In this document: one piece after another, positions 22,742-24,379 of the stretch | Numbering within the stretch: position 1 is the first letter of the stretch | How the letters are laid out: the number at the start of each line of letters is the position of its first letter | Origin: Mycobacterium sp. HUMS_12744610 | GTDB lineage: Bacteria; Actinomycetota; Actinomycetes; Mycobacteriales; Mycobacteriaceae | Length of the DNA stretch: 64,000 nucleotides | Assembly (NCBI RefSeq): GCF_041206865.1 | Contig: NZ_JBGEDP010000001.1 | Span: forward strand, 3,720,001 to 3,784,000 | Direction of reading: 5' to 3' | Notes under the pieces: model-generated | The model's input: only the letters and a program-made list of their open reading frames with translations | Database searches by the model: none | What the model was told of the DNA's origin: nothing | Position numbers and translations under genes: made by a program

Positions 22742-24379
22742 ATGGACCGGAAGAACGAAGCGGGTGCACGGCTGGCCCGCAGAGCCGACGAGATCGACAC
22801 CCGCTACCACCCGTCGGCGGCGCTGCGCCGCCAGCTGAACAAGGTGTTCCCGACGCACTGGTCGTTCCTGCTCGGCGAGATCGCGCTGTACAGCTTCGTC
22901 GTGCTGCTGCTCACCGGCGTGTACCTGACCCTGTTCTTCGACCCGTCGATGACCGAGGTCACCTACAAGGGCGTCTATCAGCCGCTGCGCGGCATCGAGA
23001 TGTCGAAGGCCTACGCCTCGACCGTCGACATCTCCTTCGAGGTGCGCGGCGGGTTGTTCATGCGCCAGATCCACCACTGGGCCGCGCTGATGTTCGCCGC
23101 CGCGATCATGGTGCACCTGGCTCGCGTCTTTTTCACCGGCGCGTTCCGGCGGCCGCGCGAGGCCAACTGGGTGATCGGGTCGCTGCTGCTGATCCTGGCC
23201 ATGTTCGAGGGCTTCTTCGGCTACTCGCTGCCCGACGACCTGCTCTCGGGCACCGGCCTGCGGGCCGCCCTGTCGTCGATCACCTTGGGAATCCCCGTGA
23301 TCGGCACCTGGCTGCACTGGGCGTTGTTCGGCGGGGACTTCCCCGGCGACGTCCTGATCCCGCGGCTGTATGCGATCCACATCCTGATCTTCCCGGGCAT
23401 CATGCTGGCGCTGATCGGACTACACCTGGCGCTGGTGTGGTTCCAGAAGCACACCCAGTTCCCCGGGCCGGGCCGCACCGAGCGCAATGTTGTCGGCGTG
23501 CGGGTGATGCCGGTGTTCGCGGTGAAGTCCGGCGCGTTCTTCGCGGCCATCGTCGGCGTGCTGGGACTGATGGGTGGCCTGATGCAGATCAACCCGATCT
23601 GGAACCTGGGCCCCTACAAGCCATCCCACGTCTCGGCCGGCTCGCAGCCCGACTTCTACCTGATGTGGACCGACGGGCTGGTGCGGCTGTGGCCGGCCTG
23701 GGAGTTGTACTTCTGGCACCACACCGTTCCGGCCGCCGTGGCCGTCGCGGTGCTGATGGGCGTGATCTTCGCCGTCCTCATCGCCTACCCGTTCCTGGAA
23801 AGGCGGTTCAGCGGCGACGCCGCCCACCACAATCTGCTGCAGCGTCCGCGCGACGTCCCCGTGCGCACGTCCATCGGGGCCATGGCGATCGCGTTCTACC
23901 TCGTGTTGACGTTCTCGTCGTTCAACGACCTCATCGCCTACAAGTTCGACATCTCGCTGAACGCGACGACCTGGATCGGGCGCATCGGGATGGTGGTGCT
24001 CCCGCCGATCGTCTACTTCGTCACCTACCGCTGGTGTGTGAGTCTGCAGCGCAGCGACCGCGCGGTGCTCGAGCACGGCATCGAAACCGGCATCATCAAG
24101 CGCCTGCCACACGGCGCCTACATCGAGGTGCACCAGCCGCTGGGCCCGGTCGACGAGCACGGCCACCCCGTCCCGCTGCCCTACCAGGGCGCTCCGGTGC
24201 CCAAGCGCGTGAACAAACTCGGCGCGGGCGGCCGACCGGGCGCCGGCAGCCTCCTGTTCGCCGATCCACCCGCCGAAGCGGCGGCCCTGCGCGAGGCGGC
24301 CCACGCCGGCGAACGGCGCGCCCTGACGGCGCTGCGCGGGCGCCAGAACGGCGACAACGGCCACGATCCGGAGCCGTAA
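22742..24379 (+). CDS. Orphan second cytochrome b subunit of the bc1 complex (QcrB paralogue)
   Basis: 545 residues from ATG at 22742 (GGGAG upstream). Full-length actinobacterial QcrB: eight or more TM helices, heme-b histidines His111/His125 (HX13H) and His213/His228 (HX14H), Qo-site PDFY at 303-306. The long cytoplasmic C-terminus (HGIETGIIKRLPHGAYIEVHQPLGP) is typical of mycobacteria. QcrB normally works with QcrA (Rieske) and QcrC (diheme cytochrome c), encoded together with it in qcrCAB. No qcrA, qcrC or cytochrome oxidase gene is nearby, so this is a stand-alone paralogue. Thr310 aligns with Thr313 of M. tuberculosis QcrB, the site of Q203 (telacebec) resistance. A divergent TetR gene probably controls it. 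Confidence 0.93.
   Translation: MDRKNEAGARLARRADEIDTRYHPSAALRRQLNKVFPTHWSFLLGEIALYSFVVLLLTGVYLTLFFDPSMTEVTYKGVYQPLRGIEMSKAYASTVDISFEVRGGLFMRQIHHWAALMFAAAIMVHLARVFFTGAFRRPREANWVIGSLLLILAMFEGFFGYSLPDDLLSGTGLRAALSSITLGIPVIGTWLHWALFGGDFPGDVLIPRLYAIHILIFPGIMLALIGLHLALVWFQKHTQFPGPGRTERNVVGVRVMPVFAVKSGAFFAAIVGVLGLMGGLMQINPIWNLGPYKPSHVSAGSQPDFYLMWTDGLVRLWPAWELYFWHHTVPAAVAVAVLMGVIFAVLIAYPFLERRFSGDAAHHNLLQRPRDVPVRTSIGAMAIAFYLVLTFSSFNDLIAYKFDISLNATTWIGRIGMVVLPPIVYFVTYRWCVSLQRSDRAVLEHGIETGIIKRLPHGAYIEVHQPLGPVDEHGHPVPLPYQGAPVPKRVNKLGAGGRPGAGSLLFADPPAEAAALREAAHAGERRALTALRGRQNGDNGHDPEP

What the first reader, a model, noticed from the sequence alone, without database searches (positions are those of the whole stretch)
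22742..24379. Orphan second QcrB without QcrA or QcrC
A full-length cytochrome b subunit of the bc1 complex sits alone between fabG1 and the MoxR locus, with all four heme histidines (111, 125, 213, 228) and the PDFY quinol motif. The usual partners are not in the window and the known qcrCAB cluster is elsewhere in mycobacteria. It could swap into the supercomplex under special conditions, and would alter response to QcrB inhibitors since its Thr310 aligns with Thr313 of the drug target.
Basis: partly seen in the sequence, partly recalled or inferred. Interest (0 to 1): 0.7.

Follow-up and report, generated by a model that had tools for sequence, protein, structure and literature searches.

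The report
Second QcrB from a lost rhodopsin operon
This mycobacterium carries a second copy of a core respiratory-chain gene under the predicted switch that, in close relatives, also faces genes for a light-driven proton pump; here the pump genes are gone but the switch and the respiratory gene remain.

Summary
Observation confirmed: window 22742-24379 (+) encodes an intact 545-aa QcrB. The genome has one other qcrB (84% identical), beside the only qcrA and qcrC found, so this is a partnerless second copy, qcrB2. But it is not alone: a TetR gene (22001-22612, -) faces it across a 27-bp inverted repeat (22672-22698), the only such site in the genome at up to 1 mismatch. In M. helveticum, M. 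bohemicum and a MAG, at the same fabG1 locus, a rhodopsin and a retinal-forming Blh lie between that TetR and qcrB2; in M. helveticum blh and qcrB2 overlap (ATGA). In more distant congeners the same kind of TetR and operator face rhodopsin-blh without qcrB; in three of eight an extra ctaD follows blh. A related TetR with a similar site faces probable sunscreen genes. qcrB2 is best read as the remnant of a rhodopsin operon: a regulated alternative cytochrome b for QcrCAB. All 15 sequences are intact and under purifying selection. Its quinol pocket differs from the resident copy (Y161F, M187I, M310L, E314D, A317V, L344V, V347A; M. tuberculosis numbering), so 'Thr313 conserved' is only part of the drug story. 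Assembly, inducer and expression are untested.

The parts
22742..24379 (+). qcrB2: orphan second QcrB (cytochrome b subunit of the bc1/bcc complex), 545 aa
   Evidence: NF050120 765 bits; four haem His; 15-row qcrB2 clade, SH-aLRT 99
22001..22612 (-). TetR-family regulator, divergent from qcrB2; counterpart of the regulator that faces rhodopsin-blh in relatives
   Evidence: PF00440; lies among rhodopsin-facing TetRs in the tree; 66-80% identity to those
22672..22698 (.). 27-bp imperfect inverted repeat CACTAGTGGTC-TGTTA-GTTCATTACTG (11-bp arms, 5-bp spacer): predicted TetR operator
   Evidence: best site in the 64-kb window for a matrix made from 12 rhodopsin promoters only: 37.8; an overlapping hit scores 7.6 and the best place elsewhere 4.4; 6 Markov copies of the window reach at most 10.1; single site in own genome at up to 1 mismatch, control 0
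22699..22741 (+). leader between predicted operator and qcrB2 start; in M. helveticum, M. bohemicum and MAG maxbin.118 rhodopsin and blh lie in this interval
21181..21948 (-). fabG1, left border of the locus, 52 bp from the TetR stop codon on the same strand (flank, not part of the unit)
24405..25370 (-). Rv1481-like gene (the stretch used as query; its true start was not settled), right border of the locus (flank; name by recalled M. tuberculosis gene order, no family search)

Best explanation
qcrB2 is an alternative cytochrome b subunit for the menaquinol:cytochrome c part of the mycobacterial III2IV2 supercomplex, and it is what is left of a TetR-headed light-energy operon. Shown by sequence: a TetR | operator-like site | rhodopsin-blh unit exists across mycobacteria; in the lineage of M. 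helveticum, M. bohemicum and the window a second qcrB stands at its end; in the window rhodopsin and blh are absent and the same TetR and site directly face qcrB2. Inferred: TetR represses qcrB2 (and itself) from the 27-bp site; an inducer, probably tied to light or photo-oxidative conditions, releases it; QcrB2 then takes the place of QcrB1 in complexes built with the single QcrA and QcrC, giving a complex with a changed quinol-oxidation pocket. Why this was useful beside a light-driven proton pump is a guess: a form of complex III that keeps turning over, or leaks fewer electrons, when light raises the proton-motive force or damages quinones and haem. Retention after loss of the pump suggests that the isoform has a use of its own.
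For: Same locus with a rhodopsin and a Blh gene between TetR and qcrB2 in M. helveticum (L032), M. bohemicum (L035) and MAG maxbin.118 (L034); Pfam PF01036 tested on two of the three rhodopsins (131.5 and 127.4 bits, cut-off 24.6) and PF15461 plus TIGR03753 on two of the three Blh (L032, L034; above cut-off), PF15461 on the third. ATGA overlap blh/qcrB2 in L032. TetR facing rhodopsin-blh without qcrB in 8 fetched loci of other congeners (L144, 145, 150, 153-156, 158). qcrB2-facing TetRs lie among rhodopsin-facing TetRs, apart (99/95) from the sunscreen-facing group. The 27-bp site has the same spacing in 12 of 12 qcrB2-facing and 12 of 13 rhodopsin-facing TetR intervals; the matrix from rhodopsin promoters alone finds it in all 12 qcrB2 promoters (20.9-42.6). 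Rhodopsin-type leader in front of qcrB2 in the M. gordonae group and G276. The four rhodopsins of qcrB2 lineages form one clade, 100/99. Recruitment of another supercomplex catalytic subunit at the same position: extra ctaD after blh in G054, G342, G266. dN/dS of nine qcrB2 pairs 0.06-0.25; 285 of 291 positions conserved (>=97%) in the other rows are kept. One qcrA and one qcrC to pair with.
Against: No expression, assembly or activity data. The window's genome has no rhodopsin or blh match, so any light link there is by descent. Counting events on the qcrB2 tree alone, 4 gains against 5 losses of rhodopsin are about equal (my count); loss is favoured by the leaders and the TetR tree. In M. 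bohemicum the blh match runs on in another frame near its 3' end, so that copy may be broken or mis-assembled. Some pocket residues of QcrB2 are also found in other copies (Asp at 314 in 12 of 94 rows, Phe at 161 in 13 of 94), so they need not be adaptations to this role. One TetR-rhodopsin locus (L230) has no recognisable site (0.8). G358 keeps rhodopsin and blh at the old place and has qcrB2 with a second TetR elsewhere, so the operon is not obligatory. Extra qcrB copies without this regulator are common: at least 57 of 396 genomes hold two near-full copies, 12 of them qcrB2 genomes.
Confidence: 0.6

Rival explanations
1. Target-substitution defence: the TetR senses a natural quinol-site inhibitor and switches on an inhibitor-tolerant QcrB.
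For: TetR facing a variant copy of a drug target is a familiar resistance layout (general knowledge). Sites that separate qcrB2 from the other rows include four quinol-pocket positions (161, 187, 314, 317): 4 of 14, hypergeometric P 0.0025 over 480 positions or 0.0096 over 330 (sites); 314 and 317 contact Q203, and 161, 187 and 314 contact TB47 (PMC8616580, passages).
Against: The same kind of regulator and site face rhodopsin-blh and probable sunscreen genes, which fits light better than an inhibitor. The same residues occur in some copies of other lineages. Thr313 is kept.
Confidence: 0.2
2. Neutral or decaying spare copy: an old extra qcrB carried along, occasionally read, with no role.
For: Extra qcrBs are frequent, and 5 of the 45 further two-copy genomes have an in-frame stop in one copy. 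The window copy departs from 6 of 291 otherwise conserved positions and has a longer branch (0.067) than M. helveticum (0.030).
Against: 15 of 15 qcrB2 sequences open with all haem ligands (the set was gathered by intact frame, but the 13 whole-genome matches also show no stop); dN/dS 0.06-0.25; the operator-like site is kept in 12 of 12 qcrB2-facing intervals although rhodopsin is gone, whereas in G019 and G197, whose neighbouring genes suggest that the whole cassette was lost, no site is found.
Confidence: 0.15
3. Chance neighbours in an insertion hot spot: qcrB2 landed beside TetR-rhodopsin-blh in the fabG1/Rv1481-like interval without a functional link.
For: The interval does take up genes (e.g. 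an extra ORF between TetR and fabG1 in L045).
Against: Same strand and ATGA overlap with blh in M. helveticum; in G358 qcrB2 is elsewhere but again has its own TetR and site; an extra ctaD stands after blh in another lineage.
Confidence: 0.1

Closest known systems
QcrB of the mycobacterial QcrCAB-CtaCDEF (III2IV2) supercomplex
   Same: Same family and length, four haem ligands, PDFY; 1055 bits to the best solved QcrB chains
   Different: Not in a qcrCAB cluster; separate 15-row clade, apart from the resident copies of the same genomes; own TetR and predicted operator; quinol-pocket changes
Mycobacterial proteorhodopsin locus (M. chlorophenolicum, M. chubuense; PMC4524478, passages read)
   Same: A rhodopsin gene in mycobacteria; its region is predicted horizontally acquired in M. 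chlorophenolicum
   Different: The main text has no occurrence of qcrB or cytochrome b; the passages seen do not mention TetR, an operator, Blh or supercomplex subunits
Gloeobacter rhodopsin / xanthorhodopsin-type proton pumps
   Same: The M. helveticum rhodopsin aligns with 9hfk (278 bits) and Gll0198 (6nwd, 260 bits) and keeps the D...T...E helix-C set and the retinal lysine motif
   Different: No rhodopsin match in the window's genome
Blh/Brp beta-carotene dioxygenases
   Same: Blh of M. helveticum and MAG maxbin.118 pass PF15461 and TIGR03753 cut-offs
   Different: No match in the window's genome
Mycosporine-like amino-acid (sunscreen) clusters
   Same: Cyclase best matches 5tpr (565 bits; recalled as desmethyl-4-deoxygadusol synthase); in G090 an O-methyltransferase, a D-Ala ligase-like and a TauD-like gene follow, a fourth gene between them has no Pfam match
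   Different: Only a related TetR and a similar site are shared; no such genes next to qcrB2 in the loci examined

Membership tests
QcrB (actinobacterial bc1 cytochrome b) | Full-length match above curated cut-off | tested here: met
   NF050120 765 bits, cut-off 500
QcrB (actinobacterial bc1 cytochrome b) | Four haem b ligand histidines | tested here: met
   His111/125/213/228
QcrB (actinobacterial bc1 cytochrome b) | Encoded in a qcrCAB cluster | tested here: not met
   no qcrA beside it; the single qcrA and qcrC lie by the other copy
QcrB (actinobacterial bc1 cytochrome b) | Assembles with QcrA and QcrC and oxidises menaquinol | not testable with these tools
   needs protein work
TetR-headed rhodopsin operon | Orthologous TetR and operator-like site in the divergent promoter | tested here: met
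   binding itself not tested
TetR-headed rhodopsin operon | Rhodopsin and blh genes present | tested here: not met
   none in own genome; present in 3 of 13 qcrB2 genomes and in contig L034. So the window holds a remnant, not a member
Proton-pumping rhodopsin (relatives' gene) | Retinal lysine and acceptor/donor carboxylates | tested here: met
Pumping not testable
Inhibitor-tolerant target copy | Lower inhibitor sensitivity than the resident copy | not testable with these tools
   only residue differences known

The most novel reading that the evidence does not exclude
Mycobacteria remodel the III2IV2 respiratory supercomplex as part of a light regulon: TetR-controlled rhodopsin operons twice recruited a spare catalytic membrane subunit of it (QcrB in the lineage of M. 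bohemicum and M. helveticum, CtaD in another), and a similar operator governs probable sunscreen synthesis. The window shows the dark remnant of that programme, in which only the respiratory isoform is still used.
Probability: 0.35. Interest if true: 0.85.

Novelty: new variant of a known kind. Interest (0 to 1): 0.62.

Why it matters
It turns an unexplained spare gene into a testable one: predicted switch, predicted binding site, predicted partner proteins. If right, it links light use to the make-up of the electron-transport chain in mycobacteria, which are usually studied as purely respiratory bacteria. It also warns that some species, M. gordonae among them, hold a second, differently lined QcrB whose part in the response to QcrB inhibitors is unknown.

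Tried and rejected
Recent duplication of the resident qcrB: rejected; the 15 qcrB2 rows form a separate clade (SH-aLRT 99) that groups (94) with orphan copies of M. sphagni and unnamed congeners and with qcrA-linked copies of several MAGs, while the resident copies of the same genomes sit elsewhere (quick method, no bootstrap, 134 different of 162 sequences).

All extra qcrBs being one system: rejected; of 14 other extra-copy loci scanned, none has the site (best score 11.9), and contexts differ, e.g. beside acpS/FAS-like genes in L202 and L207 (by eye).

Light-specific reading of the pocket residues: not claimed, since 12 of 94 other rows also have Asp at 314.

Limits of the counts. The 94 'other' rows were set by exclusion; one, L064, which lies beside qcrA, was left out without good reason; qcrA adjacency was not checked for L175-L186. 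The half-site used was chosen by eye from the same promoters, so the 24 of 24 there is partly circular; the independent tests are the rhodopsin-only matrix on qcrB2 promoters and on the HAD/cyclase loci. In one search a background locus (L157) also reached 16.4, as high as the weakest of those loci. Two near-full qcrB copies: 45 of 70 genomes (counted, span of 450 residues or more; 5 with a stop) plus 12 of 13; the 83 genomes were those with two or more matches among 396, which scored at most three candidates a genome, and the lists were cut, so these are lower bounds. I call no G genome fast- or slow-growing: their names are not known.

Paper searches: 0 papers; 0; qcrB with rhodopsin: 0; seen as listings except PMC4524478 and PMC8616580, of which I read passages. 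The library lacks most subscription journals.

Full report
WHAT IS THERE. Window 22742-24379 (+) is an open 545-codon gene matching the actinobacterial QcrB model at 765 bits, cut-off 500, with solved mycobacterial QcrB chains as best structure matches. The genome gave one more qcrB (84% identical), one qcrA and one qcrC; these three lie together. So the gene is a genuine second, partnerless copy.

THE SAME GENE ELSEWHERE. A search of 396 genomes of the genus gave at least 13 with a close qcrB2, the window's included (the other 12 are 85-93% identical to it; the list was cut). A scan of named genomes gave M. helveticum (92%), M. bohemicum, two M. gordonae strains and MAGs; several share identical qcrB2 sequences with G genomes and are probably the same. 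There are 15 different qcrB2 sequences. In 13 of the 15 the gene belongs to the TetR-headed unit at the fabG1/Rv1481-like locus; the exceptions are G324/L033 (rearranged) and G358 (other contig, with its own TetR).

THE RHODOPSIN LINK. In M. helveticum (L032), M. bohemicum (L035) and MAG maxbin.118 (L034), two more genes lie between TetR and qcrB2, in qcrB2's direction. The first is a microbial rhodopsin (PF01036: 131.5 bits for L035, 127.4 for L032, cut-off 24.6; L034 by 86% identity to L032), the second a beta-carotene 15,15'-dioxygenase of the Blh family (PF15461 and TIGR03753 above cut-off for L032 and L034; PF15461 100 bits for the M. bohemicum genome). In M. bohemicum the Blh match changes frame near its 3' end, so it may be broken or mis-assembled. 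The M. helveticum rhodopsin aligns with xanthorhodopsin-type proteins (9hfk 278 bits, Gloeobacter 6nwd 260 bits); the D/T/E helix-C set is in 24 of 24 rhodopsin rows and the lysine motif DxLAK in 22 of 24. In M. helveticum blh ends and qcrB2 starts in one ATGA. Rhodopsin was found in 32 of 396 genomes of the genus, not in the window's; blh in 3 of the 13 qcrB2 genomes, not in the window's. In G358 TetR-rhodopsin and blh-Rv1481-like lie on two contig ends, as at the old locus but without qcrB2, while qcrB2 has its own TetR on another contig.

WHERE THE UNIT COMES FROM. In eight loci of other, unnamed congeners a TetR 66-71% identical to the window's faces rhodopsin-blh with no qcrB. In the TetR tree (44 rows) the qcrB2-facing TetRs lie among the rhodopsin-facing ones. 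The interval between TetR and the first gene holds a 27-bp inverted repeat with 11-bp arms and a 5-bp spacer in 12 of 12 qcrB2-facing and 12 of 13 rhodopsin-facing loci (the thirteenth, L230, scored 0.8). A matrix made only from the 12 rhodopsin promoters puts the window site first with 37.8, the best place elsewhere in the window having 4.4; six Markov copies of the window reach at most 10.1, and the other 11 qcrB2 promoters score 20.9-42.6. As a degenerate pattern with up to one mismatch it occurs once in the window's genome; of the 13 qcrB2 genomes 12 have it (not G324), and the reversed-pattern control has no hit in 11 and one hit each in G165 and G006. In 13 further genomes the pattern hits TetR-facing promoters of rhodopsin or of the HAD/cyclase genes, with a few scattered hits and control hits (0-4 per genome). 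A rhodopsin-type leader stands in front of qcrB2 in the M. gordonae group and in G276, as expected if rhodopsin and blh were deleted. The four rhodopsins of qcrB2 lineages form one clade, 100/99. On the qcrB2 tree alone, four gains or five losses of rhodopsin would be about equally cheap; the direction rests on the leaders and the TetR tree.

WIDER REGULON. The window's TetR has relatives in 55 of 396 genomes at E<=1e-20. Of 20 further loci fetched, 17 have the TetR facing a HAD phosphatase and a sugar-phosphate cyclase (families tested on L220 and, for the cyclase, L213), and all 17 have a similar site in between (best scores 16.1-34.8; a background locus, L157, reached 16.4); L211, L227 and L230 do not. 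The cyclase best matches 5tpr (565 bits), which I recall as desmethyl-4-deoxygadusol synthase; in G090 an O-methyltransferase, a gene without Pfam match, a D-Ala ligase-like and a TauD-like gene follow, so mycosporine-type sunscreen synthesis is likely but not shown. In three unnamed congeners (G054, G342, G266) an extra ctaD, subunit I of the aa3 oxidase, stands after blh on the same strand (NF050116 1013 and 1011 bits for the first two): about 20 bp after blh in G054; farther away, past an opposite-strand ORF, in the other two; and in pieces in G266. Their TetRs group together (85/74), so this is probably one recruitment, which makes two in all, both of catalytic membrane subunits of the III2IV2 supercomplex. 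Five other TetR-rhodopsin-blh loci have no ctaD. Extra ctaDs are common (the window's genome has three matches), so chance cannot be excluded.

IS IT FUNCTIONAL? Nine qcrB2 pairs have dN/dS 0.06-0.25, against 0.03-0.19 for seven pairs of resident copies; the window's QcrB2 keeps 285 of 291 positions that are at least 97% conserved in the other rows. Fourteen positions separate the two groups; four (161, 187, 314, 317 in M. tuberculosis numbers) line the quinol site as listed in PMC8616580 (passages read; P). Against its own QcrB1 the window copy differs, among the 22 listed pocket positions, at 161 (Y/F), 187 (M/I), 310 (M/L), 314 (E/D), 317 (A/V), 344 (L/V) and 347 (V/A). Since Asp at 314 is seen in 12 of 94 other rows, such pockets occur in other species' copies too; what they change is unknown.

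MECHANISM. Most likely TetR represses qcrB2 and itself at 22672-22698; an unknown, probably light-related signal lifts this; QcrB2 then joins the only QcrA and QcrC in place of QcrB1. Shown by sequence: gene, regulator, conserved site, common descent. Inferred: repression, inducer, swap, benefit.

STANDING. No paper holding both qcrB and rhodopsin was found (0 papers) and none with qcrB, mycobacter and 'second copy' (0 papers); the ten papers (qcrB, mycobacter, paralog) were seen only as a listing. The library lacks most subscription journals. Rhodopsin in mycobacteria is known (PMC4524478, passages). The link to respiratory subunits and the common operator appear new to me on that basis.

Noticed in passing
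L145 9833-11611; L158 10659-12416; L155 4051-6003: Extra ctaD (aa3 oxidase subunit I) after TetR|rhodopsin-blh in three unnamed congeners; broken into pieces in L155.
   Followed up: partly
L212-L226, L228, L229: A related TetR with a similar site faces a HAD phosphatase and a sugar-phosphate cyclase, probably mycosporine-type sunscreen genes; L222 has further cluster genes and a convergent extra qcrB at their end.
   Followed up: partly
window 21949-22000: TetR stop and fabG1 start are 52 bp apart on one strand, so TetR transcripts may run into fabG1-inhA and the usual fabG1 promoter region is short.
   Followed up: no
L187-L190; L202, L207: Four qcrB2 genomes (G006, G047, G203, G228) carry a third qcrB; in L202 and L207 an extra qcrB sits next to acpS/FAS-like genes and a two-component system (by eye).
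   Followed up: partly
L048, L060, L191, L193: Orphan qcrBs in a shared neighbourhood (zinc alcohol dehydrogenase-like gene and others, by eye), near qcrB2 in the tree; L191 and L193 have no operator-like site.
   Followed up: partly
L174 (G026): Two qcrB genes in tandem directly after qcrA.
   Followed up: no
L211, L227 (G019, G197): Neighbours like those of the L145/L155 cassette, but rhodopsin-blh-ctaD missing; TetR kept, site not found.
   Followed up: partly
L035 5073-5956: The blh match of M. bohemicum runs in two different frames, so the gene may be broken or mis-assembled.
   Followed up: no
L045 4251-5189: An ORF resembling a type IV antitoxin (by eye only) between TetR and fabG1.
   Followed up: no
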